Shown here in pieces: positions 12,834 through 52,748 of a DNA stretch of 64,000 nt (within the stretch, counting starts at the first letter, position 1; each line of letters starts with the position of its first letter). The stretch spans positions 1-64,000 of the forward strand of contig CANFLX010000010.1 in NCBI GenBank assembly GCA_947447985.1, given 5' to 3'. This stretch comes from Comamonadaceae bacterium. GTDB taxonomy: Bacteria > Pseudomonadota > Gammaproteobacteria > Burkholderiales > Burkholderiaceae_C. Both the position numbers and the translations under genes were made by a program. The notes under the pieces were generated by a model. The model was not told the origin of the DNA and did not search any database. It saw nothing but the letters and a program-made list of their open reading frames with translations.

Positions 12834-12835
12834 CC

Positions 12836-16529: not shown

Positions 16530-16545
16530 CCGAGCTTCACGACCA

Positions 16546-16576: not shown

Positions 16577-16644
16577 GGTCGATCGTTTTCTGATGCCACT
16601 GCTTTTGGGCGCTGGCAAAGCTTGTTGAGACGGATTACACAGAC

Positions 16645-17259
16645 GTGGCATTGCAGGACATCGTGACACAAACCGTGGTGGGGCTCGGCTACGACTTGGT
16701 CGAAATCGACCGGTCGGCCGGGGGCTTGCTGCGCATCACGATCGACTTGCCCTGGGTAAAGGCGCCTGAAGGCGAGGTGCAGGTGGAGCAATTCATCACC
16801 GTGGAAGATTGCGAGAAGGTCACGCGCCAGCTGCAGTTTGCGCTGGAGGTGGACGGCATTGAGTACCGCCGCCTGGAAGTGTCTTCGCCGGGTATCGACC
16901 GGCCTTTGCGCCATGCGCAGGATTTCGAGAGATTTGCAGGCCAGGTGGTGGATGTGACCCTGAAGGCGCCGATTGGCGTGGCAGCGACGGGACAAGTCAG
17001 TGCCAACCGCAAAAAGTTTCGCGGCACCTTGGAGCGTCTGGTGGACGAGCAGGGCCAGGTGACCTGGCAAATTGTGTGGAGCGATGCGCCTGCAGTGAAG
17101 CCCGGCCAAAAGGTGAGCAAAAAGCGCGTACCGCCGCCGCTGCAGGCTTTGGGCTTCGCGTTGGACGAATTGCGTGAGGCGCGTTTGGCGCCGATTGTGA
17201 GTTTTAAGGGGCGCGGCAGCGGTGCAGAGTTGCACGGCGGCGAGGCCTCCGTTTCGTAG
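16645..17259 (+). CDS. rimP: Ribosome maturation factor RimP
   Basis: Required for late assembly of the 30S subunit. The protein is 204 residues, longer than E. coli RimP (about 150) because of a C-terminal basic tail after residue 150, a length often seen in betaproteobacteria. It starts with GTG. N-terminal domain: VVGLGYDLVEIDRSAGGLLRI-type strand pattern and VEQFITVEDCEKVTRQLQ; core motif LEVSSPGIDRPLR, the family signature, then an Sm-like C-terminal domain. It is first in the rimP-nusA-infB-rbfA-truB cluster. Confidence 0.93.
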   Translation: MALQDIVTQTVVGLGYDLVEIDRSAGGLLRITIDLPWVKAPEGEVQVEQFITVEDCEKVTRQLQFALEVDGIEYRRLEVSSPGIDRPLRHAQDFERFAGQVVDVTLKAPIGVAATGQVSANRKKFRGTLERLVDEQGQVTWQIVWSDAPAVKPGQKVSKKRVPPPLQALGFALDELREARLAPIVSFKGRGSGAELHGGEASVS

Positions 17260-17292
17260 TTATTGAAAAAGAGTGTTCAGGAGAGTCTAGGC

Positions 17293-18798: not shown

Positions 18799-18813
18799 AA
18801 GGTTACCCCATAA

Positions 18814-35675: not shown

Positions 35676-38600
35676 TTAAGCGGTGACTGTGTCGATGCGG
35701 GTGTCCGGCCCCTTGCCGCTGAAGCGATCCATGAGCAAATAAAGCACTGGCGTGATAAACAGGGTGATCGCCTGCGAGAACACCAAGCCACCCGCGACTG
35801 CCAGGCCCAGGGGTTGACGCAACTCAGCACCCGCACCAATGCCCAAGGCGATGGGCAAAGCGCCTACCAAGGCGGCCAGCGTGGTCATCATGATGGGGCG
35901 AAAGCGCAAGATACACGCCGTGCGGATGGCCTCCAGGGGTGTCATGCCCTCGTGGCGCTGCGCTTCGAGAGCAAAGTCAATCATCATGATCGCGTTCTTT
36001 TTGACGATACCAATCAACAGGACGATGCCAATGGTGGCGATCAGGGTCAGGTCTTGGCCAAACAGCATCAAGGTGGCCAAGGCCCCTACAGCGGCCGATG
36101 GAAGACCGGCCAAAATCGTGATCGGGTGAATGTAGCTCTCGTACAGCACGCCCAAAAGGATGTAGATGACCAGCAGGGCGGCGATCACCAAAATCATCTG
36201 ACTGCCCTGAGAGCTCTTGAACACCGCTGCATCACCACCGTAGCTGCTGATGATGCTCGAAGGCATTTGAATGGCTTCGCGTGCAGCATCGATCTTGGCG
36301 GTGGCATCACCCAAGGCAGCGCCAGGCGCAAGGTTGAAAGATACGGTGACCGCCTGGAGCTGGCCTACGTGGTTGATGGCGGTGGGCCCGACGGACCGCT
36401 CCACGGTGGTGAAGCTCGACAAAGGCACCAAGGCACCCGTGTTCGCCCGCACATAGATGCCTGAGAGCGCGGACTCGTCCATTTTGGCATCGGGGGCCAC
36501 TTCCATGATGACCTGGTAGGTGTCCACCGGCAGGTAAATGGTGGACACCTGGCGTTCGCCAAATGCGCTGAACAGCGCAGAACGAATGGCGTCCACCGAA
36601 ACGCCGAGCGAGTTGGCGCGGTCGCGGTCAATGTTGAGCTGGGCTTGCAGTGCACGCAGCTGTGCGTCACTGGTTACGTCACGGAAGATCGGGTCGGCCC
36701 GCATGCGCTCCTGGAGTTTGCTGGCCCATCCGTTGAGTTCATCGGCCTTGACGCTTTGCAAAATGTACTGAAACTGTGCCTTGCTCTGGCGTCCACCGAG
36801 TTGCAGATTTTGTACCGGACGCATAAATACATTGATGCCGGCCACACTGCGCAATTTTTTGCGCAGGCCTTCTATCACCTGTTTCATGGGCAGTCGCTGA
36901 CCTTGTGGCTTGAGACTGATGAACATGCGTCCGGAGTTTTGTGCGTTATTGCCACCATTGAAGGAACTCACCGCGTTGATATTGGGGTCCGCACGCAAAA
37001 TCGCGGCAACGCGCTCTTGCAAGGCGACCATGGCAGGAAAGGAGATGTCCTCGCTGGCCTCTGTGCTTATCTGGATTTGACCGATGTCTTCTTCGGGGAA
37101 AAAGCCCTTTGGAATGATGTTGACCAACCAAAATGTGCCAACAAATGTGCTCGCTGCGAGGAGCAAAATGATTTTTCGATGGCCCAGAGCCAAGTCCAAT
37201 ACACGGGTGTAACCGGCCAAGGTGGCGTCAAAACCCCGTTCAAATAGCCGCACCAACATGCCTGGCGGCTTTTTGTGCGCGTCGTCGGTCAAAAAACGGC
37301 CGGCCAACATGGGCACCAGCGTCAAGGAGACGAACGCCGAGACGATGATGGCCAAACCCACCACCACGGCAAACTCGTGGAACAACAGGCCGATGACGCC
37401 CGGCATGAAGAAAATCGGAATAAAAACAGCGATGAGCGAAGTCGAGATGGAGACGATGGTGAAGCCCACCTCGCGCGCGCCTACCAATGCCGCATGAAAA
37501 GGGGCTTCGCCTTTTTCCACGTGCCGAATAATGTTCTCCAGCACCACAATGGCATCGTCCACCACCAAGCCGACGGCCAGGGTCAGCCCGAGTAGCGAGA
37601 TGTTGTCCAAGCTGTAATGCAAGCCCCACAACAATGCCACCGCGCCCATGAGCGAAATCGGCAAGGACAGGGTGGGAATGGCGGTGGCCATGAAGCGGCG
37701 CAGAAACAGAAAAATCACCAACACGACCAGCACAATGGTTCCCGCCAGAGTCAGCGTTACATCATGAAGCGCATCACGAACAGAAACCGAGCGGTCGTTG
37801 ATGGGCGTCATACGAACCGACTGTGGCATTTGGGCCTGCAAGTCCGGCATGGCGGCGCGAATGGTGTCGACCAGGCGCACCGTATTTGCACCCGGCTGGC
37901 GCTGTATGGCGATGGTGATGGAGTTTTCTCCGTCCAGCGTGGCCCAGCTCTTGAGTGTTTCTACGCTGTTTTCAACCTTCGCAATGTCTTTCAAGCGGAT
38001 CGCGTTGCCGCCTTTGGTGCTGACGATCAAATTGCCAAAATCTGAGGCGGTTTTCAACTGTTTGTTGGCTTGCAACACCAGAGTTTGCTTGGGGCCATCC
38101 AAGGTGCCGACCGGCGTGTTGACATTGGCCGCGCGCAGGGCACTGCTGAGTTCGTCCAGGCTGATGTTGGATGCCAGCATCGCATCGGGCTTGACGCGCA
38201 CACGCACCGCAAAGCGCTTAGCGCCATAAATATTGACCTGCGCCACACCATCGATGGTGGAAAAGCTGGGCGAAATCAGGTGTTCGGCATAGTCCTGCAG
38301 GTCTGACGGTGACAACGAAGGGGATGTCAATGCGATCAACAGAACAGGAGCATCCGCAGGATTGACCTTGCGGTAGGACGGTGGCACCGTCATGTCGACG
38401 GGCAGCGTCCTCTGGGCGCGAAGTAGCGCGGCCTGAACGTCCACGGCGGCGGCATCGATGCTGCGACCTTCTTCAAACTCCAGGGTCAGAGACGTGCTGC
38501 CCAGCGTACTGCTGGAGCTGATGGTCTTGAGACCCGGGACAGTCTGAAACTGCTTTTCGAGGGGCAAGGCCACCGAGCTGGCCATCGTCTCCGGGTTGGC

Positions 38601-38759
38601 GCCTGGGAAGGTGGCCGACACATTGATGACGGGCGTGTCATAGCTGGGCAAGGCCGCAATGGGAATATTGCGCAGTCCGATGACGCCTGCACCAATCATC
38701 GCTACATTGAGCAACACCGTCATCACCGGACGGCGGATAAAGAGTTCTGAGAAATTCAT
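35676..38759 (-). CDS. RND efflux inner-membrane pump (MdtC/MuxC-like HAE-1)
   Basis: Second RND pump, 1027 residues. It opens with NFSELFIRRPVMTVLLNVAM, IPIAALPSYDTPVINVSATF and FPGANPETMASSVALPLEKQF-type sequence typical of the MdtB/MdtC branch. The TM4 proton-relay aspartates are Asp401-Asp402 in GLVVDDAIVVLENI. The C-terminal half carries GIVLLIGIVKKNAIMMIDFA and ends before a short cytoplasmic tail. Start ATG overlaps the adaptor stop by 4 bp (ATGA). Unlike the first pump, no outer-membrane channel gene is adjacent, so it probably borrows one, perhaps the NodT-type protein at 1057. Confidence 0.94.
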   Translation of the reverse strand: MNFSELFIRRPVMTVLLNVAMIGAGVIGLRNIPIAALPSYDTPVINVSATFPGANPETMASSVALPLEKQFQTVPGLKTISSSSTLGSTSLTLEFEEGRSIDAAAVDVQAALLRAQRTLPVDMTVPPSYRKVNPADAPVLLIALTSPSLSPSDLQDYAEHLISPSFSTIDGVAQVNIYGAKRFAVRVRVKPDAMLASNISLDELSSALRAANVNTPVGTLDGPKQTLVLQANKQLKTASDFGNLIVSTKGGNAIRLKDIAKVENSVETLKSWATLDGENSITIAIQRQPGANTVRLVDTIRAAMPDLQAQMPQSVRMTPINDRSVSVRDALHDVTLTLAGTIVLVVLVIFLFLRRFMATAIPTLSLPISLMGAVALLWGLHYSLDNISLLGLTLAVGLVVDDAIVVLENIIRHVEKGEAPFHAALVGAREVGFTIVSISTSLIAVFIPIFFMPGVIGLLFHEFAVVVGLAIIVSAFVSLTLVPMLAGRFLTDDAHKKPPGMLVRLFERGFDATLAGYTRVLDLALGHRKIILLLAASTFVGTFWLVNIIPKGFFPEEDIGQIQISTEASEDISFPAMVALQERVAAILRADPNINAVSSFNGGNNAQNSGRMFISLKPQGQRLPMKQVIEGLRKKLRSVAGINVFMRPVQNLQLGGRQSKAQFQYILQSVKADELNGWASKLQERMRADPIFRDVTSDAQLRALQAQLNIDRDRANSLGVSVDAIRSALFSAFGERQVSTIYLPVDTYQVIMEVAPDAKMDESALSGIYVRANTGALVPLSSFTTVERSVGPTAINHVGQLQAVTVSFNLAPGAALGDATAKIDAAREAIQMPSSIISSYGGDAAVFKSSQGSQMILVIAALLVIYILLGVLYESYIHPITILAGLPSAAVGALATLMLFGQDLTLIATIGIVLLIGIVKKNAIMMIDFALEAQRHEGMTPLEAIRTACILRFRPIMMTTLAALVGALPIALGIGAGAELRQPLGLAVAGGLVFSQAITLFITPVLYLLMDRFSGKGPDTRIDTVTA

Positions 38760-40015
38760 GGCGTCGTGCGCGAAGCGGCAGCGGCAGGGGCGGCACTTGC
38801 TGCACCCGAGGCACCAGCGGCAGGGCCGGAGGCACCTGTTTTGGGTTCTTTGGCACGCTCCACCACCAGCGAGCCTGGGCGCAGGTTTTGTTTGCCATCC
38901 ACCACCACGCTGTCTCCCGCCGAGATGCCGGTGATGGCGGCCTCACCGCTTTGGCCTCCCACCTGTTTTACGGGACGCAAGACGGCTTTGCCGTCTTCAA
39001 CGACATACACAATCGTGCCGCGCGCCGATTGAATCAGCGCCACCTGGGGCACCACCACCGCATCTTTGAGGGTGTTGATCGTTTGGGAAATCTCAACATA
39101 GGCGCCGGGCCATAACTTGCCCGCTTTGTTGTCAAAAAGCGCGCGGGCCCGCACGGTGCCCGAGGCTGGGTCGACCGCGTTGTCGACAAAGTACAGGCGT
39201 CCTTGAAAGCTGCCTCCGCCGTCGGCCAGCGTGGCCGTCACTTTCGCTCCGCCGTCTTTGAGTGCTGCAATGGCGTCAGCCAGGTTTCGCTGGGGTAAAT
39301 TGAAGGTCACCGCAATCGGGTCCAACTGCGTGATGGTGACGATAGGGCTCACGCCGGCCACCAAGGCCGTGCCGTTTGACACACTCAGGGCGCCGGCGCG
39401 GCCGCTCAGCGGCGCGTTGATGTGGTTGTAAGACACCGCAACTTTGGCCGCATCGATCGCAGCTTGATCTGCCAACAGAGTTGCCGCAGCGGAATCCACA
39501 CCGGCTTGTGCCGTATCCACCGCACTTTTTGCGACAAAGTTTTGTGCCAGTAGCTCTTGGGCACGCTTGAGTTGGCGTTGTGCGTCGGATAACAGTGCCT
39601 GGTCTTTCGCGTGCTGCGCCCGCACTTTGGCCAGATTCGCTTCATCGGCTCGCGCATCCAGCGTAAACAGGGGATCACCAGCGCGCACAAATTGCCCGCC
39701 ATTGATGTGCATCTTGGTCACAACCGAATTGATCTGTGATTTGATGTCAACACTGGCCAATGGAAACACCGTGCCATTCGCACGAAGGTTGACCGCCAGG
39801 TCTTTTGCTTCGGCTTTCACCGTTGACACGGTGACCGGTGGGCCTGCGGGCGCTGACGCCGCCGACGCCGGAGCCGATGCCGTCGGGGCAGCAGGCGCCG
39901 CACTGGCCGCCGTCGCGGCCACAGTGACCTCCGCCGGCTTTTTATCGCTGCAAGCAGTGATGCCCACGCCCAAGACCAAAGTGAACAAGGTAAATGTGAT
40001 TTTTGTGAAATTCAT
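38756..40015 (-). CDS. RND efflux adaptor lipoprotein (MdtA-like membrane fusion protein)
   Basis: A 419-residue adaptor for the downstream RND pump. It has a lipoprotein signal with lipobox GITAC, lipidated cysteine at residue 22, then an Ala/Pro/Ser-rich linker (about 30-60). The core has barrel-sandwich halves around INSVVTKMHINGGQFVRAGDPLFTLD and INAPLSGRAGALSVSNG, with an alpha hairpin between. The C-terminal tail is Ala/Gly/Pro-rich low-complexity. It precedes and overlaps the pump gene. The 209 bp upstream hold its promoter region. Confidence 0.93.
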   Translation of the reverse strand: MNFTKITFTLFTLVLGVGITACSDKKPAEVTVAATAASAAPAAPTASAPASAASAPAGPPVTVSTVKAEAKDLAVNLRANGTVFPLASVDIKSQINSVVTKMHINGGQFVRAGDPLFTLDARADEANLAKVRAQHAKDQALLSDAQRQLKRAQELLAQNFVAKSAVDTAQAGVDSAAATLLADQAAIDAAKVAVSYNHINAPLSGRAGALSVSNGTALVAGVSPIVTITQLDPIAVTFNLPQRNLADAIAALKDGGAKVTATLADGGGSFQGRLYFVDNAVDPASGTVRARALFDNKAGKLWPGAYVEISQTINTLKDAVVVPQVALIQSARGTIVYVVEDGKAVLRPVKQVGGQSGEAAITGISAGDSVVVDGKQNLRPGSLVVERAKEPKTGASGPAAGASGAASAAPAAAASRTTP

Positions 40016-40224: not shown

Positions 40225-40860
40225 TCACTCCCCGAGCGTCAATTCAACACCATATTCCAGCGCAGCGTCCTGCAGGGACTCCAACTGCCCGCGGGCGTAG
40301 GTGCTGAACAGGTACAGGTCAAAACTTTGCTGCTCAGCACGGTAAATACTGCAGGGAACGTGGTGGTGCCCGGTGAGCTTGACGTGTCCGATGGCAAATG
40401 CGGCTTCGCGGAAGTCCAAGGCAAACAACTTACCCAAGGCCTCCACGGCTTTGGGGCCCTTGACGTGCACCCGGCAACGCGCGTGGCTGAGGTCCAGCAC
40501 GGCGCCGATCTCCGGCGTGACGTGTTGACGCAGGAGGTCCAGGGGCGGCGTGTTTTCGCCAATCAACAGAAATTCGTTCGGCCCCGTTCGCATCAGCAAA
40601 CCCAAGGCCGATTGCAGTGTTTGTCCTGTGCTTGCAGGCAAAGGAAACAGGTCGGTGGCCGCGACCGCTTCGGCGAGTGCAGCGCACAGAGCCTGCGTGC
40701 CTCCCATCCAGGTACTGATCTGGACCACGCTGCTCAGCCCTTCGGCATGGAGCTGCACCTGCACCTGTCCCTGGCGATCGGCCCTGCGGTGGGGCTGGAT
40801 GGACGCAAACGGACTGCGCAAGGCGGTGGCGGCAGGCGTTGTGGGCTTTGAATCAGACAC
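40225..40860 (-). CDS. soxG: Sarcosine oxidase gamma subunit
   Basis: A 211-residue protein of the SoxG family, structurally a GcvT-like fragment without catalytic groups. It shows the family pattern QISTWMGGTQAL, LMRTGPNEFLLIGE, VLDLSHARCRVHVKGPKAVEALGKLFALDF (in parts) and YRAEQQSFDLYLFSTYARGQLE near the C-terminus. In the heterotetramer it packs with the alpha and beta subunits. Its start overlaps the soxA stop by 8 bp. Last gene of the operon. Confidence 0.92.
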   Translation of the reverse strand: MSDSKPTTPAATALRSPFASIQPHRRADRQGQVQVQLHAEGLSSVVQISTWMGGTQALCAALAEAVAATDLFPLPASTGQTLQSALGLLMRTGPNEFLLIGENTPPLDLLRQHVTPEIGAVLDLSHARCRVHVKGPKAVEALGKLFALDFREAAFAIGHVKLTGHHHVPCSIYRAEQQSFDLYLFSTYARGQLESLQDAALEYGVELTLGE

Positions 40861-43800
40861 GGTAGCGCGCTCCTTCAGGATCCAAGAAGCAGGGGTCTAC
40901 CACACGCAGGCGGTAGGTTCGGCCCTGGGTAGGGGAGGTGGCAACAATCTCTTGGCCAACATGTGCGGTGCCGCCTTGGAGCAGTCCCAGCGCAATCGCC
41001 TTGCCCACGGATTTGCTGTAGGTGGTGGAGGTGACGTGGCCACGACCGTGGCCCTTGATCGCATCGTCCGCAAAAAAGAGGATGGAGCCATTGCTGGGTG
41101 GCTCTTTGTCGTCCACGGCCTCCAGGCCGATCAGGGTGGGCCGGTTGTCACGCGCCAAGTTGGGGCTGCGGCGCAGTGCGTCGCCCCAGAACGACTTGGT
41201 CTTGCTGGCCATCTTGCCCGCGCCCAAATCGTCCAGCGTGGTGCGTCCGTCCATCTCAGAGCCGACCACGTGGCCTTTTTCAATGCGCAGCGAACCCAGG
41301 GCTTCCAGTCCATAGGGCTGCATGTTCCAGGGCTTTCCGGCGGCGATCACATGCTCCCACACGGCCAGGCCGTGGTGGGTGGGCGTGAAGATTTCGTAGG
41401 CCAGCTCGCCAGAGAAGGTCAGGCGCAGGATGCGCAGGGGTACATCGGCCAGGGCACCACTGCCCACGGTGTCTAGCACGCCCATAAAGGGCAGGGCAGT
41501 ATTGCTCAGGTCCAGGTGCGGGAATGCCGCTTGCAGTGCATCGCGGGTGCGGGGGCCCGCGACACTCATGGCCGCCCATTGGTCAGACACCGAGGCCACG
41601 GTCACACGCAACGTGGGCCACACCACCTGGAGCAAAAACTCCAGGTGGCTCATGACCTTGGCTGCCTGTGCAGTGGTTGTGGTCATGAAAAACTGGGTTT
41701 CGCTGATGCGGGTGGTGGTGCCGTCGTCCATGACGATGCCGTCCTCGCGCAGCATGAAGCCGTAGCGCGCTTTGCCTACCGCCAGTTTCGAGAACCCATT
41801 GACATAGACGCGGTCCAGAAATTCGGCGGCGTCCGGCCCTTGGACATCAATTTTGCCAAGCGTTGAGGTGTCGGCAATGCCGACGGAGCTGCGCACAAAG
41901 TCCATCTCCGCCTTGTAGGCCTCGCCCAGCGTGGTGCCATGGGTGCGGTACCAAAGCGGCCGCAACCACAGGCCTGCCTCCATCTTGACGCCGCCGTTGG
42001 CCTCGTGCCAGTCGTGCATGGCCGTGCGACGCTCGGGCTGGAAATGGGGCCCCACATTGCGTCCGGCCAAAGCACCCAGGCTGGCTGGCGTATAGGGGGG
42101 GCGGAAAGTCGTGGTGCCCGCTGCCGTGACGTCGATACCACGCGCGGCTGCCATCAGGCTCAAGCCGTTGATGTTGGAGGTCTTGCCCTGGTCGGTACCC
42201 ATGCCCAGGGTGGTGTAGCGCTTGAGATGCTCCACCGATTGGTAACCCTCGCGGTGGGCGAGTTCCACGTCGGCCACCGTGACATCGTTTTGAAAATCAA
42301 TGAACGCTTTATCCGAGGGCCTGCTAGAGAGCAGCGTGCCGGCTGGGACGAATGCAATGCTGGTGTCGTCTTCGAGTGCGGGTGCGTGGTCGTTGGCGTT
42401 ACGTCCATTGATGGTCGCCGCCTGGGCGCCCGCTTGCCAGCCCGAGTTGATGGCGTCCTGCCAGGTTTGGCTGCCCACCATGGCGCCCGCGCCAAACTGG
42501 GCGCGGTCAAAGCCACCGGGCACGAAGCAGGCGATGTCGCTGCGGTACACCGGTTTGACGTTGCGGTGGGAGCTCAGGTGCACCGTGGGCGTCCAGCCCC
42601 CGGACATGGCGACCAGATCAACGTCAAGCTCCATCGGGCCGCCCATGACTGCACCGCTGGCAGCGTCATAACCCGCAATGCGGCAGCGCTTGGCGTGCAT
42701 GCGGCCGTACACATCGGTCACGGTGCTGCCCGTTTGTACCGTGATACCCGCGCTGGAGGCTGTCGCTAAAAGACTTGGCTGCACCACGCTGCGCAGGTCC
42801 ACCACATTGACCTGAGAGCCCGCACGCGCCAGCGCCAAGGCGTCGGCGTAGGCAGCATCGTTGTTCACGCAAAAAACTGCGCGCTTGCCGGGTGCTACGG
42901 CATAGCGGTTGACATAAGCGCCTACGGCTCCCGCCAGCATGACGCCGGGTTTGTCGTTGCCTGCAAACACCAATGGCCGCTCGATCGCGCCACAGGCCAT
43001 GACAATGGCATTGGCGCGCACGGTGCGCATGCGCTGGCGAGGCACGCCGTGGGCGGCGTCGGCTTCGCCGGGGGCGGTGCGCTCGATCACGCCGACGGTG
43101 TTGCCGTCGTACATGCCGAAGGCCGTGGAGCGCGTCAGCATGCGCACCTTGCCAGTAGCCTGCAGTTCGTCCAAGATCGTTGCCAGCCATTGGCCTTTGG
43201 CGCCGTTGTTTGACTGGTTGAGCAGTGCGCCGCCCAGGGCAAAGTCTTGCTCCACCAGCATGACCTCACAGCCCGCGCGGGCAGCACTTAGCGCAGCACT
43301 CAGTCCTGCCGCACCGGAGCCAATCACCAACACGTCGGTGTAGTCGTTGTGCCAGTCGTAGCGGTGCACATCGGCGTCATTGACCGAAGCGCCCAGGCCC
43401 GCTGCCTTGCGAATGAAATGCTCGTACAGCATCCACGCATGGCGCGTGGGGCCCATGAAAGTCTTGTAATAAAAACCCGCCACAAAAAAAGGCGACAGCA
43501 CCGAGGTGATGGCCATCGCATCAAACCTGACCGAGGGCCAGGCGTTTTGCGTGCGCGTGCGCAAGCCGTTTTCGAGTTCTAAAACGGTGGCGGCGATATT
43601 GGGCTCGTGCGTGCCCTTGGCGCCTACGGTCAAGAGCGCGTTGGCTTCTTCAACACCGGCGGCCATGATGCCGCGGGGGCGGTGGTATTTGAACGACCGC
43701 GCCACCAGGTGCTCGCCATGGGCGAGCAGGGTGGAGGCCACGGTATCACCGGCAAAGCCCTGAAAGGACTTGCCGTCCAATGTGAAGCTCAGCGGACGGC

Positions 43801-43876
43801 TGCGCTCAATGCGTCCGCCTTGTGCCAGGCGGAACGCACCACCGGTGGCTGCGTTGGAAGGGGTGGCTTGCGTCAT
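40853..43876 (-). CDS. soxA: Sarcosine oxidase alpha subunit
   Basis: Large subunit (1007 residues) of heterotetrameric sarcosine oxidase, which oxidises sarcosine to glycine, H2O2 and 5,10-methylene-tetrahydrofolate. Order: N-terminal Fer2-like domain (SFTLDGKSFQGFAGDTVAS, about 25-110), NAD-binding domain with VLVIGSGAAGLSAALSAARAG (about 180), a second dinucleotide half and long linker, then a C-terminal GcvT aminomethyltransferase-type domain for folate (from about 600; YGFMLREDGIVMDDGTTTR, SIGSLRIEKGHVVGSEMDGRT-like GSLRIEKGHVVGSEMDG). All expected parts are present. ATG overlaps the soxD stop (ATGA). Confidence 0.96.
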   Translation of the reverse strand: MTQATPSNAATGGAFRLAQGGRIERSRPLSFTLDGKSFQGFAGDTVASTLLAHGEHLVARSFKYHRPRGIMAAGVEEANALLTVGAKGTHEPNIAATVLELENGLRTRTQNAWPSVRFDAMAITSVLSPFFVAGFYYKTFMGPTRHAWMLYEHFIRKAAGLGASVNDADVHRYDWHNDYTDVLVIGSGAAGLSAALSAARAGCEVMLVEQDFALGGALLNQSNNGAKGQWLATILDELQATGKVRMLTRSTAFGMYDGNTVGVIERTAPGEADAAHGVPRQRMRTVRANAIVMACGAIERPLVFAGNDKPGVMLAGAVGAYVNRYAVAPGKRAVFCVNNDAAYADALALARAGSQVNVVDLRSVVQPSLLATASSAGITVQTGSTVTDVYGRMHAKRCRIAGYDAASGAVMGGPMELDVDLVAMSGGWTPTVHLSSHRNVKPVYRSDIACFVPGGFDRAQFGAGAMVGSQTWQDAINSGWQAGAQAATINGRNANDHAPALEDDTSIAFVPAGTLLSSRPSDKAFIDFQNDVTVADVELAHREGYQSVEHLKRYTTLGMGTDQGKTSNINGLSLMAAARGIDVTAAGTTTFRPPYTPASLGALAGRNVGPHFQPERRTAMHDWHEANGGVKMEAGLWLRPLWYRTHGTTLGEAYKAEMDFVRSSVGIADTSTLGKIDVQGPDAAEFLDRVYVNGFSKLAVGKARYGFMLREDGIVMDDGTTTRISETQFFMTTTTAQAAKVMSHLEFLLQVVWPTLRVTVASVSDQWAAMSVAGPRTRDALQAAFPHLDLSNTALPFMGVLDTVGSGALADVPLRILRLTFSGELAYEIFTPTHHGLAVWEHVIAAGKPWNMQPYGLEALGSLRIEKGHVVGSEMDGRTTLDDLGAGKMASKTKSFWGDALRRSPNLARDNRPTLIGLEAVDDKEPPSNGSILFFADDAIKGHGRGHVTSTTYSKSVGKAIALGLLQGGTAHVGQEIVATSPTQGRTYRLRVVDPCFLDPEGARYRV

Positions 43877-44154
43877 GGCAGTTCTCTCTCGCTGGCGATG
43901 ACCACAGACTCAATGTCGTGTGTAACGGTATGGCGTTTCACCACCAGCCAGCGGCGACATCCCAGGGTGTGTTGCCAGAATTCGCTGTGGACGCCTTTGG
44001 GGTTGTTGCGGGTGTAGACCGCGTCCACCCAGGCGTCGTGGTTGTCTGCTGACGGCTCGGTCGTCAAGGCCGGGTAGGCTTTGGTGGCGTCGCCGAAGTA
44101 GTTGAATTCTTCGTGGTCGCGCAGCCCGCAGTGGGGGCAGTGGATGCGTAGCAT
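43873..44154 (-). CDS. soxD: Sarcosine oxidase delta subunit
   Basis: A 93-residue zinc-binding subunit. Ligands expected from the family are present: Cys6 and Cys9 (HCPHCG) and a His and Cys in FWQHTLGCRRWL. The middle part RDHEEFNYFGDATKAYP and DAWVDAVYTRNNPKGVHSEFW is strongly conserved in SoxD. A GAGGAGG site precedes the ATG. It stabilises the alpha subunit in the tetramer. Confidence 0.95.
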   Translation of the reverse strand: MLRIHCPHCGLRDHEEFNYFGDATKAYPALTTEPSADNHDAWVDAVYTRNNPKGVHSEFWQHTLGCRRWLVVKRHTVTHDIESVVIASERELP

Positions 44155-44169
44155 GGTGGGCGCCTCCTC

Positions 44170-45426
44170 TTACTGCAAATGGTTGTAAGGGCCGGTACCG
44201 GCTTCGTCGATGTAGCGACCCTGGGCAAAGCGGTCCATGGTGAAGCCGGCGTTGTAGGCGTGCGGCGCATCGTTGGCAATCGTGTGGGCAAAGCACCAGC
44301 CCGAGGCCGGCGTGGCCTTGAAGCCCCCGTAGCACCAGCCACCATTGAGGTAGAGCCCGTCCACCGGAGTTTTGGTGATGATGGGGCTGCCGTCGGGCGT
44401 CATGTCCATGATGCCGCCCCAGTGGCGCAGCACCCGCAGACGCGCAGCGCTGGGCATGGCGCTGACCAGGGCCTGGGTGACTTCACTCACATTGGCCAGG
44501 TTGCCGCGCTGGGCGTAGGAGTTGTAGCGGTCGATATGGCCGCCAAACACCAGGCCGCCTTTGTCGGACTGCGAGAAATAAAAGTACGACGCAGACCAGA
44601 CCACCACGTGGTTGACCACGGGCTTGATCGACTCGCTGACATAGGCTTGCAGCACATGGCTCTCGATGGGCAGTTCCAGCCCCGCTTTTTGGGCCAGGAC
44701 CGAGGTGTGGCCCGCCACCGCAATGCCGACCTTGCCCGCGCTGATGTCGCCGCGTGTGGTCTTGAGGCCGGTAATGCGCTCACCCGACCATTGGTAGTCC
44801 AGCACTTCGCAGTTTTGAATAATGTCCACGCCCAGCGCATTGGCGGCGCGTGCATAGCCCCAGACCACGGCGTCGTGGCGGGCGGTGCCTGCATCGGGTT
44901 GCAGCATGGCGCCGTAAATTGGAAAACGGGCCTTGTCCGAGAAATCGAGGTAGGGCGCCTCTTTCATCACGTCTTCGCGCGTCAGGATGTCGGCGCGGAT
45001 GCCGTTCAAGCGCATGATGTTCGCACGGCGGATTTGGGCGTCCTGCGCGCTGGGCGACATGGTGACGTACAAATAGCCCCGCGGCGAGAACATCACGTTG
45101 TAGTTGAGGTCCTGCGACATGCCGCGCCACAGCGACATGGAATGCTCGTAGAACGCCGTGTTGTCCTGCATCATGTAGTTGGAGCGCACGATGGTCGTGT
45201 TGCGCCCCGCGTTGCCCGAGCCGATGTAGCCCTTTTCCAGCACGGCAATATTTTTGATGCCGTGGTTCTTGGCCAGGTAGTAGGCCGTGGCCAGCCCGTG
45301 GCCACCGCCGCCCACGATGACCACGTCGTAGCTCTTTTTGGGCTCGGGGTCGCGCCAGGCACGGTCCCAGTGTTGGTGTCCCGACAGTGCATTGCGCAGC
45401 AGGGACCAGGCTGAGTAATGGGACAT
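44170..45426 (-). CDS. soxB: Sarcosine oxidase beta subunit
   Basis: Catalytic FAD/FMN subunit, 418 residues from ATG 45426 (GAGGAG about 7 nt upstream; the codon before it is TTG). Dinucleotide motif VVIVGGGGHGLATAYYLA near residue 35, GSGNAGRNTTIVRSNY, and the flavin-linked histidine candidate His184 in TARHDAVVWGYARAA, matching the covalent FMN histidine of known SoxB. The C-terminus has GGIMDMTPDGSPIITKTP and LYLNGGWCYGGFKATPASG. It oxidises the N-methyl group of sarcosine. Confidence 0.96.
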   Translation of the reverse strand: MSHYSAWSLLRNALSGHQHWDRAWRDPEPKKSYDVVIVGGGGHGLATAYYLAKNHGIKNIAVLEKGYIGSGNAGRNTTIVRSNYMMQDNTAFYEHSMSLWRGMSQDLNYNVMFSPRGYLYVTMSPSAQDAQIRRANIMRLNGIRADILTREDVMKEAPYLDFSDKARFPIYGAMLQPDAGTARHDAVVWGYARAANALGVDIIQNCEVLDYQWSGERITGLKTTRGDISAGKVGIAVAGHTSVLAQKAGLELPIESHVLQAYVSESIKPVVNHVVVWSASYFYFSQSDKGGLVFGGHIDRYNSYAQRGNLANVSEVTQALVSAMPSAARLRVLRHWGGIMDMTPDGSPIITKTPVDGLYLNGGWCYGGFKATPASGWCFAHTIANDAPHAYNAGFTMDRFAQGRYIDEAGTGPYNHLQ

Positions 45427-45438
45427 CAACAGCTCCTC

Positions 45439-47868
45439 TTACATGCGCATGCGCTTGGCTTCGGGATCAAACGGCGGATCCATTTGCAGGCGTGCGGCAC
45501 GGCGTTCGCCCAGAATTTCAATTTCCAGCGTCATGTCGGGCTTGAAGCACTCGGTGGGGATGTAACCCTGTGCCAGCGATTGGTCCACATAGTGACCGTA
45601 GCCACCGGACGTCACCCAACCGACCACCTTGCCATCGACCCAAATGGGTTCGTCGCCCATGACGTCGCAGTCCAGCGCGTCCACGACCATGAAGATGCGG
45701 GTCTTTTTGGGGCCGTCGGCCTTTTCCTTGATGGCGGCGGCCTTGCCGATGAACTCGTGCTGGTCCAGTTTGATAAAACGGTCCAGGCCGGCCTCGAAGG
45801 GGCCGTAGATGGGGCGGAACTCGCGGAACCAGGTGCCGAAGTTTTTCTCCAAACGCAGGCACAACAGCGCGCGCATGCCGAAGTTCCGGATGCCCAGGTC
45901 AGCACCGGCTTCCATGATGCTTTCGTACAAGCGGCGTTGGTATTCAGGGGCCACCCAGATCTCGTAGCCCAGGTCACCGGTGTAGGTCACGCGGTTGACC
46001 TTGGCCTGCACCGTGGCTATTTCCATTTCACGGTAGTCCATGAACTTGAACGCCGCGTTGGACACATCATCGTCAGTCAGGCGTTGCAACAGTTCGCGCG
46101 ATTGGGGGCCTGCAATCGACAAGCCGATGAGCTTCATGCCATAGGGCTTGATCGAAACCGAGCCGTCTTTGGGCAGCGTCTGTTCAAACCAACGCATGTG
46201 GTAGACCTGCGCCTGGCTGGAGCCCCACATCATGAAACGCTCGTCGTCGGCCTTGGCAATCGTGAAGTCGCCAATGATCTTGCCCTGGTGGTTCAGCATG
46301 GGGCACAGCTGCAAGCGGCCTTTTTTGGGCAGGGTGTTGGTCATCTGACCTTGCAGCCAGGCCTCAGCACCGGGGCCGGTGATCTCGTACTTGGCAAAGT
46401 TGGCGACCTCGGTCACGCCCACGGCCTCACGCACCGCCTTGCATTCGGCCTTGATGTGCTCAAAGTCGTTGGAGCGGTGGAAGGACACAATGTCTTTCGC
46501 CTCAGTACCTTTGGGGGCGAACCACAAAGGTGTTTCCATTCCCCAGGAGTCGCCCATCACTGCGCCTTGTTCGATGAACTTGTCGTACAGCGGCGTGGTT
46601 TGCAGCGGACGCGCTGCGGGCAATTCTTCGTTGGGGAAGCGGATGCGGAAGCGACGCGAATAGTTCTCGCGCACCTTGGCGTTGGTGTAAGTGCGGGTGG
46701 CCCAGTCGCCGTAGCGCGCCACATCCATGCCCCAGATGTCAAAGCCGGGGTCGCCGTCCACCATCCAGTTGGAGAGCGCCAGGCCGACGCCACCGCCCTG
46801 GCTGAAGCCCGCCATCACGCCGCACGCCGACCAGAAGTTGGTGCGGCCTTGCACCGGACCGACCAAGGGATTGCCGTCAGGTGCGAAGGTGAAGGGGCCG
46901 TTGATCACGCGTTTGATGCCGGCGTTTTCAAGGGTAGGGAAGTGCTTGAACGCGATTTCCAAAGAGGGCGCAATGCGGTCCAAGTCCGGCTGCAGCAACT
47001 CCTGGCCAAAGCTCCAGGGCGTCGTTTTGGTGGACCAGGGCTTGCCTGCTTGTTCATAGACGCCCAGCACCATGCCTTTGCCCTCTTGGCGCAAATAGCT
47101 CTCGGCGCCGAAGTCAATCACGTGACCGATCTCTTTGCCTGCGCTCTTGTTGAATGCTTCCACTTCAGGAATGTCGTCGGTCACGAGGTACATATGCTCC
47201 ATGGCCAGCACCGGCAACTCAATGCCTACCATGCGGCCCACTTCGCGCGCCCACAAGCCGCCTGCGTTGACTACGTGTTCGCACTCGACCACGCCTTTGT
47301 TGGTGATCACGCGCCAGGTGCCGTCGGGCTTTTGTTCCAGGCTTTCCACCTTGGTTTGCACCTCGATGGTCGCACCGCCAAGGCGTGCGGCTTTGGCGTA
47401 GGCGTAGGTCGTGCCGCTAGGGTCCAAGTGGCCTTCATTGGGGTCCAGCAGTGCGCCCAAGAAGTATTTTTCTTCAATAAAGGGGAAATAGTTCAGCGCC
47501 TCTTTGACCGAAATGATTTCGGTCTCCATGCCCAAATAGCGGCCGCGCGCCACGGTCATTTTCAAGAACTCCATGCGCTCTGGCGTGTCGGCCAGCATGA
47601 TGCCGGGCGACTTGTGCATGCCGCAGGATTGACCGGAAATGCGTTCCAGCTCTTCATACAGACTCACGGTGTAGCTTTGGAGCATGGCCACATTGGGGTC
47701 ACCGTTGAGGGTGTGAAAGCCGCCTGCGGCATGCCAGGTGGAGCCCGAAGTCAACTGGTCGCGCTCAATGAGCATGACGTCGCTCCAGCCTTTTTTCGTC
47801 AAGTGGTAGAGCACCGAACATCCCACCACACCACCACCAATTACCACTACCCGTGCTGTTGTTTTCAC
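45439..47868 (-). CDS. FAD-dependent dimethylglycine/sarcosine dehydrogenase with GcvT-type folate domain
   Basis: An 809-residue two-domain demethylase. GTG 47868 is preferred as start because AGGAA lies 7 nt upstream and the N-terminus becomes KTTARVVVIGGGVVGCSV; a TTG at 47901 would add 11 residues. Residues 1-about 390 are the DAO-type FAD domain with GGGVVG and the covalent-flavin motif TSGSTWHAAGG (His46 from this start). An FAO_M linker leads to the GCV_T and C-terminal GCV_T domains (KYEITGPGAEAWLQGQMTN; VTYTGDLGYEIWVAPEYQ; LRLEKNFGTWFREF). Mitochondrial DMGDH/SARDH share this design and pass formaldehyde to tetrahydrofolate. Dimethylglycine is the best guess because soxBDAG, which handles sarcosine, lies immediately downstream. 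Confidence 0.9.
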   Translation of the reverse strand: MKTTARVVVIGGGVVGCSVLYHLTKKGWSDVMLIERDQLTSGSTWHAAGGFHTLNGDPNVAMLQSYTVSLYEELERISGQSCGMHKSPGIMLADTPERMEFLKMTVARGRYLGMETEIISVKEALNYFPFIEEKYFLGALLDPNEGHLDPSGTTYAYAKAARLGGATIEVQTKVESLEQKPDGTWRVITNKGVVECEHVVNAGGLWAREVGRMVGIELPVLAMEHMYLVTDDIPEVEAFNKSAGKEIGHVIDFGAESYLRQEGKGMVLGVYEQAGKPWSTKTTPWSFGQELLQPDLDRIAPSLEIAFKHFPTLENAGIKRVINGPFTFAPDGNPLVGPVQGRTNFWSACGVMAGFSQGGGVGLALSNWMVDGDPGFDIWGMDVARYGDWATRTYTNAKVRENYSRRFRIRFPNEELPAARPLQTTPLYDKFIEQGAVMGDSWGMETPLWFAPKGTEAKDIVSFHRSNDFEHIKAECKAVREAVGVTEVANFAKYEITGPGAEAWLQGQMTNTLPKKGRLQLCPMLNHQGKIIGDFTIAKADDERFMMWGSSQAQVYHMRWFEQTLPKDGSVSIKPYGMKLIGLSIAGPQSRELLQRLTDDDVSNAAFKFMDYREMEIATVQAKVNRVTYTGDLGYEIWVAPEYQRRLYESIMEAGADLGIRNFGMRALLCLRLEKNFGTWFREFRPIYGPFEAGLDRFIKLDQHEFIGKAAAIKEKADGPKKTRIFMVVDALDCDVMGDEPIWVDGKVVGWVTSGGYGHYVDQSLAQGYIPTECFKPDMTLEIEILGERRAARLQMDPPFDPEAKRMRM

Positions 47869-47920
47869 TGCTGCGTTCCTTGCGTCAAAAGTCAATGTCA
47901 AAAATGAAGGATGCTGTCAC

Positions 47921-49480
47921 TCAAAAGTCGGTCGGCGCGCCGCCTTCAGCCTTGCGCTTGGCGACAAAGGCGTCGAGTTCTTCTTCGATGGCGGGGTCCA
48001 TATAAGGGCGCTCATAGGCGGCCAATTCTTTTTGCCACACGGCGTTGGCCTTATCGTACGCGGTGGGGCGCCCGCCCTCGTCCCAGCTCTCGTAATTGCG
48101 CCAGTCCGAGATGATGGGAGAGTAAAACGCCGTCTCAAAGCGCTCCAGCGTGTGCGCCGTTCCGAAGTAGTGGCCGCCAGGGCCCACATCGCGCACGGCG
48201 TCCAGGCCCAAACCGGCAGGGCTGACGTCCAGGGGCGCCAAAAATTCGGCCACCATCTGCAGCAGATCGCAGTCCAGAATGAATTTTTCGAACGATGCGG
48301 TCAGTCCACCTTCCATCCAGCCCGCGCTGTGCATGATGAAGTTGCCCCCCGCCTGGGTGAGCGCCCAGAGCGAAAACACCGACTCGTAGGCCGCTTGGGC
48401 GTCCACCGTATTGGCGGCGTTCACATTGCTCGTGCGGTAAGGAATGCCGTATTTGCGGCACAGCTGACCGCCCACCAGTACCGCCTTCATGTACTCGGGT
48501 GTACCGAAGGCGGGAGCGCCACTCTTCATGTCCACATTGCTGGTGAAGCCGCCGTAGACCACCGGTGCACCGGGGCGCACCAGTTGTGTCAGCGCAATAC
48601 CGGCCAGGGCTTCGGCGTTTTGCTGCGCGAGAGCGCCTGCAATCGTCACCGGTGCCATGGCACCCGCCAGTGTGAACGGCGTCAGGATGATGATCTGGTT
48701 GCGCGAGGACATTTCCAAAATGCCTTGCAGCATGGGCGTGTCCAGGCGCAGCGGAGAGGAGCTGTTGATGATGGAGAACAGCGAGGGCTCTCGCTCCATC
48801 TGTTCGTGGCTGATGCCGCGCGCGATGCGCGCAATCTCGAGTCCGTCCTGGTTGCGCTCCTTGCCCAGTGAGTAGGCGTGGAAGGCTTTGTCGGTCAGTT
48901 TGGCAATATCCGACAGGCAGTCCAGGTGGCGGATGGAGGCGTGCAAATCCACCGGCTCCACAGGGTAGCCGCCCGAGCAATGGATGATGTCGTAACGCTG
49001 CGCCAGCTTGACCAGGTTGCGAAAGTCCTGCTGGTTGCCTGCGCGCCGGCCGCCTTGCATGTCAGAGGCATTGGGTGGGCTTGCGACCTGGGCAAAGGCC
49101 AGGTTTTTGCCGCCGATGTGCACATTGCGCTCGGGGTTGCGGGCGTGCAAGGTGAATTCGGAGGGGCAGGTTTTGATCGCTTCCAGAATCAGGTTGCGAT
49201 CGAAGCGCACACGCTCCGATCCGGGTTTGACGTCGGCCCCGGCTTTTTTCAAGATCTCACGGGCACCTTCGTGCATGAAGTCCATGCCCATTTCTTCGAG
49301 GATGGTGAGCGATGTATTGTGTATCGCCTCCAGCTCATCCTCGGACACCATGGGCGTGGGAGCAAAGCGGTGCTGGAGCTTGCGGTACTTGGCCGTGGAG
49401 GGCGCAACGCGGACGGTGCCGCTTCCGCGACCTGCGCGTCTGCGCGCTGGCGTTGCGGGTGTTGATGCTTCTTCTGTCAT
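47921..49480 (-). CDS. MttB-family methyltransferase, non-pyrrolysine (trimethylamine/glycine-betaine type)
   Basis: A 519-residue member of the MttB superfamily. ATG 49480 is chosen because GGAG lies 6 nt upstream; an in-frame GTG at 49492 is the alternative. A basic Ala/Arg-rich N-terminus precedes RFAPTPMVSEDELEAIHNTSL. The core holds TFDRNLILEA-like FDRNLILEAI, HCSGGYPVEPVDL, TPFTLAGAMAPVTIAGALAQ, VYGGFTSNVDMKSGAPAFG and the region RTSNVNAANTVDAQAAYES. The frame is uninterrupted, so there is no amber codon for pyrrolysine. Members without pyrrolysine include glycine betaine:corrinoid methyltransferase (MtgB). Head of an operon for dimethylglycine and sarcosine breakdown, so glycine betaine is the likely substrate, but no corrinoid protein gene is seen. 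Confidence 0.88.
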   Translation of the reverse strand: MTEEASTPATPARRRAGRGSGTVRVAPSTAKYRKLQHRFAPTPMVSEDELEAIHNTSLTILEEMGMDFMHEGAREILKKAGADVKPGSERVRFDRNLILEAIKTCPSEFTLHARNPERNVHIGGKNLAFAQVASPPNASDMQGGRRAGNQQDFRNLVKLAQRYDIIHCSGGYPVEPVDLHASIRHLDCLSDIAKLTDKAFHAYSLGKERNQDGLEIARIARGISHEQMEREPSLFSIINSSSPLRLDTPMLQGILEMSSRNQIIILTPFTLAGAMAPVTIAGALAQQNAEALAGIALTQLVRPGAPVVYGGFTSNVDMKSGAPAFGTPEYMKAVLVGGQLCRKYGIPYRTSNVNAANTVDAQAAYESVFSLWALTQAGGNFIMHSAGWMEGGLTASFEKFILDCDLLQMVAEFLAPLDVSPAGLGLDAVRDVGPGGHYFGTAHTLERFETAFYSPIISDWRNYESWDEGGRPTAYDKANAVWQKELAAYERPYMDPAIEEELDAFVAKRKAEGGAPTDF

Positions 49481-49562
49481 GGGGGTCTCCACGTTGAACC
49501 AAAAAGTCGCGCTCTTCGCGCGGCCACCACAGAACGGTGGCGTGCCGCCTAGAACCTTTTTA

Positions 49563-49568
49563 ATTCTA
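49563..49568 (-). promoter_or_regulatory. Candidate -10 element of the mttB-dmg-sox operon
   Basis: Read on the minus strand this is TAGAAT, 82 bp before the chosen start. A weak -35 (GCTGAA) lies 16 bp upstream. It overlaps a CTATGCA half-site (49566-49572) that repeats the outer arm of the 25-bp dyad. Confidence 0.4.
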
Positions 49569-49616
49569 TGCAGTACCGGCCCTTTTCAGCCCTGAAGCCC
49601 TGCGATACCCCCGGTG

Positions 49617-49641
49617 CTATGCAATTTAATAAATTGCATAG
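49617..49641. promoter_or_regulatory. 25-bp dyad, likely operator of the betaine/sarcosine operon
   Basis: Arms CTATGCAATTT and AAATTGCATAG are perfect inverted repeats around an AAT centre. It is AT-rich in a GC-rich genome, lies about 137 bp before the mttB-like start and has no T-tract, so it is not a terminator. It looks like a binding site for a dimeric regulator. No regulator gene is nearby. Confidence 0.7.
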
Positions 49642-49668
49642 TTCGCTGGGCAAGAGCTGTACGCGGCA

Positions 49669-49697
49669 CAAAAAAAAGCCGGAGCGGGCCCCGGCTT
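49669..49697 (-). terminator. Terminator of the SWIB gene
   Basis: On the minus strand, AAGCCGG pairs with CCGGCTT (with inner GC pairs) and is followed by a run of eight T. It lies 37 bp after the SWIB stop codon, separating that gene from the mttB operon. Confidence 0.88.
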
Positions 49698-49733
49698 CTT
49701 TGTCATGCCGCCCCGAGGGCAGGCACTTGGATA

Positions 49734-51730: not shown

Positions 51731-51819
51731 AGCGAAAAAAAGGGGGGTGAATGAGCGTGAATTGCGCCAGCGAGCAAATAGGCGGCAGCGATTACCATGC
51801 TGATCTTGGAGGTTACACC

Positions 51820-52743: not shown

Positions 52744-52748
52744 AAACG

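What the first reader, a model, noticed from the sequence alone, without database searches (positions are those of the whole stretch)
40225..49480. Non-pyrrolysine MttB methyltransferase heads a complete dimethylglycine-to-glycine operon, without a corrinoid partner
The six minus-strand genes read mttB-like, DMGDH-like, soxB, soxD, soxA, soxG with short gaps or overlaps. Together they could remove three methyl groups from glycine betaine. Known MtgB-type enzymes need a cognate corrinoid protein, a reactivase and a methyl acceptor, often in the same cluster; none of these is visible here. Aerobic bacteria usually start this pathway with the GbcAB Rieske enzyme or BHMT. So this MttB-like protein may use a corrinoid protein encoded elsewhere, methylate a different acceptor, or act on another quaternary amine. 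I consider this the most likely place for undescribed biochemistry in the window.
Basis: partly seen in the sequence, partly recalled or inferred. Interest (0 to 1): 0.8.

Follow-up and report, generated by a model that had tools for sequence, protein, structure and literature searches.

The report
Betaine demethylation operon, B12 partner elsewhere
A bacterium of the Comamonadaceae carries an operon that probably strips all three methyl groups from a betaine, its first enzyme passing a methyl group to a vitamin-B12 protein encoded elsewhere in the genome; the partner that looked missing is therefore present, but which betaine this enzyme handles is still open.

Summary
In detail: six minus-strand genes, mttB (non-pyrrolysine), DMGDH-like, soxB, soxD, soxA, soxG, spaced -8 to 19 bases. 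"No corrinoid partner" holds for the window only. Elsewhere in the same genome one cluster carries an MtgC-type corrinoid protein, a RamA-type reactivase, an MtgD-type methyltransferase, MetV/MetF-like reductase genes, purU, a GbdR-like regulator and an MtgE-like protein. In a sample of 100 same-genus genomes no RamA or MtgC was found without MttB; at 90% completeness or more, 22 of 22 MttB-positive and 0 of 36 MttB-negative genomes have both. In a Hydrogenophaga MAG the same operon adjoins that cluster. This matches the aerobic MtgBCD(E) system reported in Ruegeria in 2025 (PMC12478193). New here: the window enzyme is not the MtgB ortholog, which is a paralog on another contig. It belongs to a separate clade in which a predicted methyl-cage tyrosine is replaced, so glycine betaine is likely but not secure; another trimethylated amino acid is the main rival. 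MetH was not found in 18 of the 22 carriers.

The parts
47921..49480 (-). mttB paralog (window type): non-pyrrolysine MttB-superfamily methyltransferase, predicted betaine:MtgC methyltransferase
   Evidence: PF06253 677 bits; 182 of 467 aligned positions (39%) identical to D. hafniense MtgB; 22-row clade in the tree
45439..47901 (-). dimethylglycine dehydrogenase-like flavoprotein with folate-binding GCV_T domains
   Evidence: STWHAAG stretch aligned with rat DMGDH (that its His binds FAD covalently is recalled)
44170..45429 (-). soxB, sarcosine oxidase beta family
   Evidence: TIGR01373 647.8 bits, cut-off 529.45
43873..44154 (-). soxD, sarcosine oxidase delta family
   Evidence: PF04267 103.6 bits over its cut-off 27; TIGR01374 102.5 under its cut-off 116.5
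40853..43876 (-). soxA, sarcosine oxidase alpha family
   Evidence: TIGR01372 1210.4 bits, cut-off 1164
40225..40860 (-). soxG, sarcosine oxidase gamma family (divergent)
   Evidence: TIGR01375 82.8 bits, under its cut-off 143.95
49481..49733 (-). upstream region of the operon; no copy of the candidate GbdR box at up to 4 mismatches

Best explanation
The window MttB is a corrinoid-dependent methyltransferase for an N-trimethylated amino acid, most likely glycine betaine. It moves one methyl group to the cob(I)alamin of the MtgC protein encoded on contig C4. MtgD passes the methyl to tetrahydrofolate, the MetV/MetF-like reductase oxidises methyl-H4F, and PurU can release formate; RamA re-reduces MtgC when it oxidises. 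The DMGDH-like flavoprotein and the SoxBDAG oxidase encoded downstream remove the second and third methyl groups onto folate, giving glycine if the substrate is glycine betaine. Shown: genes, order, conserved synteny, the single MtgC/RamA hub, co-occurrence. Inferred: all catalytic steps, the use of MtgC by this particular paralog, and the substrate (glycine betaine about 0.5, another trimethylated amino acid about 0.35). The confidence given is for the MtgC-dependent mechanism, not for the substrate.
For: One MtgC (B12-binding and B12-binding_2 domains, GDIHDIG stretch) and one RamA in the genome, clustered with DUF1638, Virulence_fact, MetV-like, MetF-like, MtgD, MtgE-like, purU, GbdR-like, a choline-type binding protein and betB. 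Genus sample of 100: MttB 54, RamA 49, MtgC 46; no RamA or MtgC genome lacks MttB; 22 of 22 against 0 of 36 at 90% completeness or more (the excluded corrinoid-type rows and the two edge fragments were checked). Closed genome G210: four MttB, one MtgC, one RamA. The same operon adjoins the mtgC-ramA-mtgE cluster in Hydrogenophaga L045. On a Terrarubrum plasmid a same-clade MttB with SoxBDAG and a DMGDH-like gene (54% identical) lies about 13 kb from mtgC and RamA across the record start. Two successive oxidative demethylases downstream suggest a substrate with three N-methyl groups. Precedent: mtgC and mtgD mutants of Ruegeria cannot grow on glycine betaine, and its candidate mtgB genes lie apart from mtgC (PMC12478193: abstract, Results part 1 of 2, Discussion and passages seen).
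Against: The operon is not linked to mtgC in this genome, and only 1 of 31 betaproteobacterial loci shows the link within the stored flank. The closer ortholog of the mtgC-adjacent MtgB of S. meliloti and Paracoccus is on contig C11 (66-69% identity; window protein 43-46%), so MtgC could serve that paralog and not this one. The co-occurrence counts any PF06253 gene and the genomes are related, so its Fisher values overstate the support. In the family sample 2 of the 4 genomes with a RACo-type protein have no MttB. Several hub names rest on Pfam or on NCBIfam matches under the curated cut-off (MtgC 206.1 of 370, reactivase 389.5 of 800, GbdR 411.5 of 480). The DhMtgB cage residue Tyr94 is Ala here. 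No GbdR-type box was found upstream of the operon. No expression or enzyme data exist, and in the parts of PMC12478193 that I read no mtgB mutant is described.
Confidence: 0.82

Rival explanations
1. The operon serves a second N-trimethylated amino acid, not glycine betaine, which is handled by the C11 MttB with the C11 SoxBDAG copy; both lines feed the same MtgC hub.
For: Window MttB is in a 22-row clade (100/100) whose members have Ala, Gly, Ser or Asn at the DhMtgB Tyr94 column; the 13-row clade with the mtgC-adjacent MtgBs (94/91) keeps Tyr in 12 rows. Of five genus genomes with a single PF06253 match, the two of 92% and 99% completeness with a full gene (G214, G163) carry the C11 type, about 6 kb from the mtgE end of the hub cluster and 18 kb from mtgC. 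The Azoarcus mtgC locus has a C11-like SoxB (72% against 49%). Four alphaproteobacterial members of the window clade sit beside enolase-superfamily, Xaa-Pro peptidase, OYE-like or CocE/NonD genes. A weak form of the mtgC box lies upstream of the C11 type in 3 of 6 loci and upstream of the window operon in 0 of 15.
Against: The DMGDH-like protein is the closest in the held genome to the one in the Azoarcus mtgC cluster (609 against 516 and 275 bits) and matches mammalian DMGDH at E about 1e-179; SoxA and SoxB pass their family cut-offs. Two less complete genomes with a single match (G184 72%, G190 58%) carry, judged by score only, the window type, and G153 a short match that I did not type. The role of Tyr94 is a docking prediction. 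No substrate-specific transporter or enzyme lies in the operon.
Confidence: 0.35
2. The window MttB works without MtgC: it methylates free cobalamin or another acceptor.
For: The Rhizobiales orthologs (71-77% identity) show no mtgC within the stored flank: 0 of 49 loci. A Methanolobus MtgB homolog methylates free cob(I)alamin in vitro (PMC6855144, passage).
Against: None of the 22 MttB genomes of at least 90% completeness in the genus sample lacks RamA or MtgC; physical linkage in Hydrogenophaga and Terrarubrum.
Confidence: 0.05
3. The first methyl is removed by GbcAB or by BHMT, and mttB is accessory.
For: A protein that passes the NCBIfam betaine-homocysteine methyltransferase cut-off (476.4 bits, cut-off 338) lies in the C4 cluster; one Rieske alpha subunit exists.
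Against: The Rieske protein scores 60 bits against a GbcA cut-off of 670. The BHMT-like protein matches a MetH homocysteine domain better (139.7 bits) than mammalian BHMT (at most 63.9 bits), as expected of MtgE; PMC12478193 cites that an S. meliloti bhmt mutant still grows on glycine betaine when given methionine.
Confidence: 0.04

Closest known systems
Aerobic MtgBCD(E) glycine betaine methyltransferase / split methionine synthase of Ruegeria pomeroyi (PMC12478193)
   Same: MtgC, MtgD, MtgE, RamA, DUF1638 and a MetF2-like gene; several PF06253 paralogs with one MtgC; MttB genes apart from mtgC; MetH not found in most carriers
   Different: Comamonadaceae; the window MttB is in a different clade from the mtgC-adjacent MtgB and heads its own DMGDH-SoxBDAG operon; the paper's text has 0 occurrences of 'Betaproteobacteria' and 'freshwater' (it does name Gammaproteobacteria)
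MtgB of Desulfitobacterium hafniense (PDB 2qne, 9yce)
   Same: PF06253 family, non-pyrrolysine, 39% identity, Asn199/Arg309/His345 aligned
   Different: Tyr94 is Ala and Phe353 is Gly; no mtgC next to the gene; host lifestyle differs (aerobic by inference)
Putative trimethylamine methyltransferase 4yyc (S. meliloti by recall)
   Same: best-scoring solved structure for the window protein (409 bits)
   Different: far closer to the C11 paralog (755.3 bits)
Mammalian dimethylglycine dehydrogenase (4p9s, 5l46)
   Same: near full-length alignment, DMGDH-type domains
   Different: bacterial operon; substrate not tested
Eubacterium MtpB, MtcB, MtyB and others
   Same: several MttB-superfamily enzymes share one corrinoid protein (as stated in PMC12478193, Discussion)
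   Different: anaerobe; sequences not compared here

Membership tests
MttB superfamily (PF06253) | full-length match to the family model | tested here: met
   677 bits, profile positions 1-500 of 500
Pyrrolysine TMA methyltransferase (TIGR02369) | over the equivalog cut-off | tested here: not met
   293.7 bits, cut-off 525; frame without internal stop
MtgB, glycine betaine methyltransferase | catalyses glycine betaine:corrinoid methyl transfer | not testable with these tools
   no assay
MtgB, glycine betaine methyltransferase | docked pocket residues Tyr94, Asn199, Arg309, His345 (PMC6855144, passages) | tested here: inconclusive
   three of four kept, Tyr94 is Ala
MtgB, glycine betaine methyltransferase | ortholog of the mtgC-adjacent aerobic MtgB | tested here: not met
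   separate clade; the C11 gene is that ortholog
Aerobic MtgBCD(E) system | MtgC, MtgD, MtgE and RamA encoded in the genome | tested here: met
   MtgC and reactivase are under their NCBIfam cut-offs but over Pfam's, and most of the genes around mtgC recur in Azoarcus, S. meliloti and Paracoccus
Aerobic MtgBCD(E) system | MtgC required for both methionine synthesis and betaine use | not testable with these tools
   no MetH-type protein found here, but a core-MetE-like methionine synthase is present (569.8 bits, cut-off 392)
Dimethylglycine dehydrogenase | FAD, FAO_M and GCV_T domains and best match to DMGDH | tested here: met
Dimethylglycine dehydrogenase | acts on dimethylglycine | not testable with these tools
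   DMGDH-like relatives also sit in clusters with enolase-superfamily genes
Heterotetrameric sarcosine oxidase | all four subunits over family cut-offs | tested here: inconclusive
   alpha and beta over, delta and gamma under; in the C11 copy alpha and beta over, gamma under, delta not scanned
GbcAB glycine betaine monooxygenase | GbcA over its cut-off in the genome | tested here: not met
   the one Ring_hydroxyl_A protein found: 60 bits against 670

The most novel reading that the evidence does not exclude
The operon is a dedicated three-step line that strips a bulkier N-trimethylated amino acid, not glycine betaine, to the free amino acid. Its MttB represents a clade in which the cage tyrosine is replaced by small residues, and it shares one MtgC/RamA hub with at least three other MttB paralogs, making MtgC a general intake port for methylated osmolytes that in most carriers of this genus has also taken over from MetH.
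Probability: 0.33. Interest if true: 0.68.

Novelty: new variant of a known kind. Interest (0 to 1): 0.5.

Why it matters
It extends the aerobic, B12-dependent hub for betaine breakdown from the bacteria in which it was described to Comamonadaceae (at least one of the named loci is a lake MAG by its isolate name, Baikal-deep) and to an Azoarcus plasmid. It names a clade of MttB-family enzymes with an open substrate and a testable prediction. In one genus the hub goes with absence of the classical methionine synthase MetH (not found in 18 of 22 carriers and 3 of 36 non-carriers of at least 90% completeness), so the proposed dual role of MtgC can be tested by comparison.

Tried and rejected
Rejected: an absent corrinoid partner; a pyrrolysine enzyme; GbcAB; a true BHMT as the first step. 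Left open: glycine betaine against another trimethylated amino acid.

Weak or empty: upstream regions of the window-type operon are too variable to yield a clear shared box. The candidate GbdR box was drawn by eye from the mtgC upstream regions, so its hits there are circular in part. It has no hit of up to 4 mismatches just upstream of the Azoarcus mtgC. Mononucleotide-shuffled sequence gave 0 hits at 0-2 mismatches and 13 at 3-4, but the real loci gave 35 at 3-4 (window and L015 share one), so the shuffle understates the background and the 4-mismatch hits upstream of C11-type genes (3 of 6 loci: L005, L119, L120; not L112, L122, L126) are only suggestive. Rhizobiales orthologs gave no informative neighbours. 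The weak B12-binding_2 hit on C17 (18.9 bits, under the cut-off) was fetched as L014 and not examined further. No structure was predicted: no pocket coordinates would have come out of it. Paper searches list no report of this system in Comamonadaceae; they cover the held open-access library, and at most 20 rows each were seen.

Limits of the counts: MetH and MtgC were told apart by score and frame (MetH: 69.9 bits or more, frame 557 aa or more; MtgC: 58.9-64 bits, profile 3-73, frame 210-400 aa). Rows not counted as either include short corrinoid-type proteins in MttB-negative genomes (G156, G160, G161, G171, G173, G179, G203); two of them (G203:C166, G173:C28, 61.1 and 59.2 bits, 384-aa frames) lie in the MtgC score range. 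I fetched eight such rows from those seven genomes: seven match MtgC at 27-33% identity over part of its length and one (G171) not at all, whereas MtgC in three other carriers is 92-95% identical; the two edge fragments counted as MtgC (G153, G242) are 98-99% identical. The 90% completeness set ignores contamination (58 genomes: 22 with MttB, 36 without); the tool's stricter set gives 19 of 49 for MttB and 19 of 49 for RamA. Draft assemblies can hide a MetH. C62 and C72 carry only parts of MttB genes at contig ends.

Papers: PMC12478193: abstract, Results part 1 of 2, Discussion, passages. PMC6855144 and PMC9842639: passages. PMC8604678: abstract start in a listing; a term search of its text found nothing. 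Others: listings only. Proline betaine pathway genes (enolase-type epimerase, OYE-like demethylase) are recalled.
Full report
OBSERVATION. The six genes are as described. mttB starts most plausibly at the ATG at 49480. In 25 of the 31 the DMGDH-like gene follows mttB; in the other 6 the contig ends within about 1 kb. In 19 of the 31 soxB follows as well; in the other 12 the contig ends first. None of the 49 Rhizobiales loci has DMGDH, sox or mtgC homologs in the stored flank at the threshold used (E 1e-10, 40% of the query); in the one looked at by eye, L074, the neighbours seem unrelated.

THE PARTNER. The window lies on contig C10 of a 2.85 Mb, 99.56% complete assembly. The genome has four PF06253 matches: C11, C10 (window), and contig-end fragments on C62 and C72. 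It has one B12-binding_2 protein over the cut-off (C4, 232 aa) and one RACo-type reactivase (C4). The C4 cluster reads BKACE, two ABC transporter frames (OpuA-like; the first is 69% identical to a gene annotated proV in Azoarcus), GbdR-like regulator, purU (opposite strand), mtgC, DUF1638, Virulence_fact, MetV-like (DUF5981), MetF-like, mtgD, ramA, choline-type binding protein, betB, a choline dehydrogenase-like frame (by eye), MtgE-like. MtgC matches solved corrinoid proteins including the partner of MttB (7xcn) and keeps the GDIHDIG stretch; its best NCBIfam models are MtgC but under their cut-offs (206.1 of 370). MtgD passes its model (367.9, cut-off 259) and matches methyl-H4F:corrinoid methyltransferases. 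This is close to the gene set that PMC12478193 describes for aerobic glycine betaine demethylation.

CO-OCCURRENCE. In 150 genomes of the family, 2 have MttB and 4 a RACo-type protein; both MttB genomes are among the 4, so 2 RACo-type genomes lack MttB. In 100 genomes of the genus (drawn from a larger group), 54 have MttB, 49 RamA, 46 MtgC (44 plus 2 contig-edge fragments that are 98-99% identical to MtgC). No RamA or MtgC genome lacks MttB. The 5 MttB genomes without RamA and the 8 without MtgC are all under 90% complete. At 90% or more, 22 of 22 MttB genomes have both and 0 of 36 others have either. Seven MttB-negative genomes carry other corrinoid-type proteins that were not counted; eight such rows, checked, are 27-33% identical to MtgC or show no match. 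These genomes are related and the count is for any MttB paralog, so the Fisher value (1.8e-16) is not from independent trials. MetH was found in 4 of the 22 and 33 of the 36; PMC12478193 reports that about 70% (108 of 156) of marine carriers of MtgBCD lack MetH. The genome studied here shows no MetH but has a core-MetE-like protein, so MtgC need not be its only route to methionine.

PHYSICAL LINKS. In Hydrogenophaga L045 the window-type operon (MttB 86%, DMGDH 84%) is divergent from a GbdR-like gene, beyond which lie purU, mtgC, DUF1638, Virulence_fact, MetV, MetF2, MtgD, RamA and MtgE. In Terrarubrum flagellatum (NZ_CP091854.1) SoxBDAG, a DMGDH-like gene (54% to the window one), an MtgE-like gene and an MttB of the window clade lie near one end of a circular record, and mtgC, DUF1638 and a Virulence_fact-RamA fusion near the other, about 13 kb apart across the start. 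In closed genome G210 (5.49 Mb) the window-type operon is far from the mtgC cluster; there is one MtgC, one RamA, one MetH and four MttB. Azoarcus sp. KH32C carries sox, DMGDH-like, ETF, GlxA-type, purU, mtgC to ramA and betBA genes in one 40 kb plasmid stretch, with no MttB match in it.

WHICH PARALOG IS MtgB. The MttB next to mtgC in S. meliloti and Paracoccus aminovorans is 66-69% identical to the C11 gene and 43-46% to the window gene. A tree of 37 rows separates a clade with those two and the C11 and C62 types (13 rows, 94/91, just under the program's star) from a clade of 22 rows with the window type (100/100) (long branches were flagged). In the window clade the column of DhMtgB Tyr94 is Ala, Gly, Ser or Asn, never Tyr; in the other it is Tyr in 12 of 13 rows (Thr in G225_L128). 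Arg309 and His345 are kept in 36 of 37 rows, Asn199 in 35; the exceptions are the very divergent C72 type, whose alignment is unsure, and Ser for Asn in SmelpB_L138. The role of these residues is a docking prediction (PMC6855144, passages). Five genus genomes have one PF06253 match: G163 and G214 (99% and 92% complete) the C11 type, about 6 kb from the mtgE end of the hub and 18 kb from mtgC; G184 and G190 (72% and 58%) by score the window type; G153 a short match not typed. So the window gene is a paralog of the likely MtgB, and its substrate cannot be read from orthology.

SUBSTRATE. Two consecutive folate-linked oxidative demethylases argue for a substrate with three N-methyl groups, of which glycine betaine is the simplest; the DMGDH-like protein is also the closest in the held genome to the Azoarcus one (609 bits against 516 and 275). 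Against this stand the altered cage column, the second SoxBDAG copy near the C11 gene, and the neighbourhoods of four alphaproteobacterial members of the window clade, with enolase-superfamily, Xaa-Pro peptidase, OYE-like or CocE/NonD genes, which I read, from recall of proline betaine pathways, as hints of other betaines. The closest plasmid-borne DMGDH-like relatives listed (44-49%) include two beside an MttB and an enolase-superfamily gene, but those MttBs belong to the other clade. A candidate regulator box (TGTCGT-N4-CGACAA-N5-RGTCGC) is seen upstream of mtgC in the six clusters aligned (five exact, one with two mismatches) and, with 3-4 mismatches, upstream of the OpuA-like gene in G163 and G225; it was not found just upstream of the window-type operon in 15 loci, nor of the Azoarcus mtgC; a degenerate form lies upstream of the C11 type in 3 of 6 loci.

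VERDICT. A real, conserved operon, explained in outline by a published system; the corrinoid protein that seemed missing is encoded in trans. What remains new is the paralog clade, its private DMGDH-SoxBDAG line and the spread of the hub in Comamonadaceae.

Noticed in passing
L005 (G000:C11:4000-23900), 4325-19901: Second soxBDAG set (soxD at 10025-10282) with an L-serine dehydratase-like frame, a hydantoinase/oxoprolinase-like gene, dipeptide-type ABC frames and the C11-type mttB: likely the ordinary MtgB locus. Names partly by eye.
   Followed up: partly
L116 (G210:C1:1695000-1714900), 4684-11288: The divergent C72-type MttB lies next to two DMGDH-like genes; none of the four aligned pocket residues is kept in it (alignment unsure).
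   Followed up: partly
L141, 11756-14038: The gene annotated 'virulence factor' on the Terrarubrum plasmid matches Virulence_fact and then RamA in one annotated gene, suggesting that the small Virulence_fact protein of these clusters works with the reactivase.
   Followed up: partly
100 genus genomes: MetH was not found in 18 of 22 MttB-positive but in only 3 of 36 MttB-negative genomes of at least 90% completeness.
   Followed up: partly
G000:C51:10499-11494 (L102): Core-MetE-like methionine synthase in a genome without a detected MetH.
   Followed up: no
G054 and G091: RACo-type reactivase genes in family members that have no MttB match; their corrinoid partner was not looked for.
   Followed up: no
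G203:C166 and G173:C28 (L146, L147): Corrinoid-type proteins with 384-aa frames, 31-33% identical to MtgC over part of its length, in MttB-negative genomes.
   Followed up: partly
window 35676-40015: Two frames that look like an RND efflux pump and its membrane-fusion protein (by eye) lie 209 bases downstream of soxG on the same strand.
   Followed up: no
window 51751-54056: Agmatinase-like frame followed by an FAD-dependent amine oxidase-like frame (by eye, not scanned).
   Followed up: no
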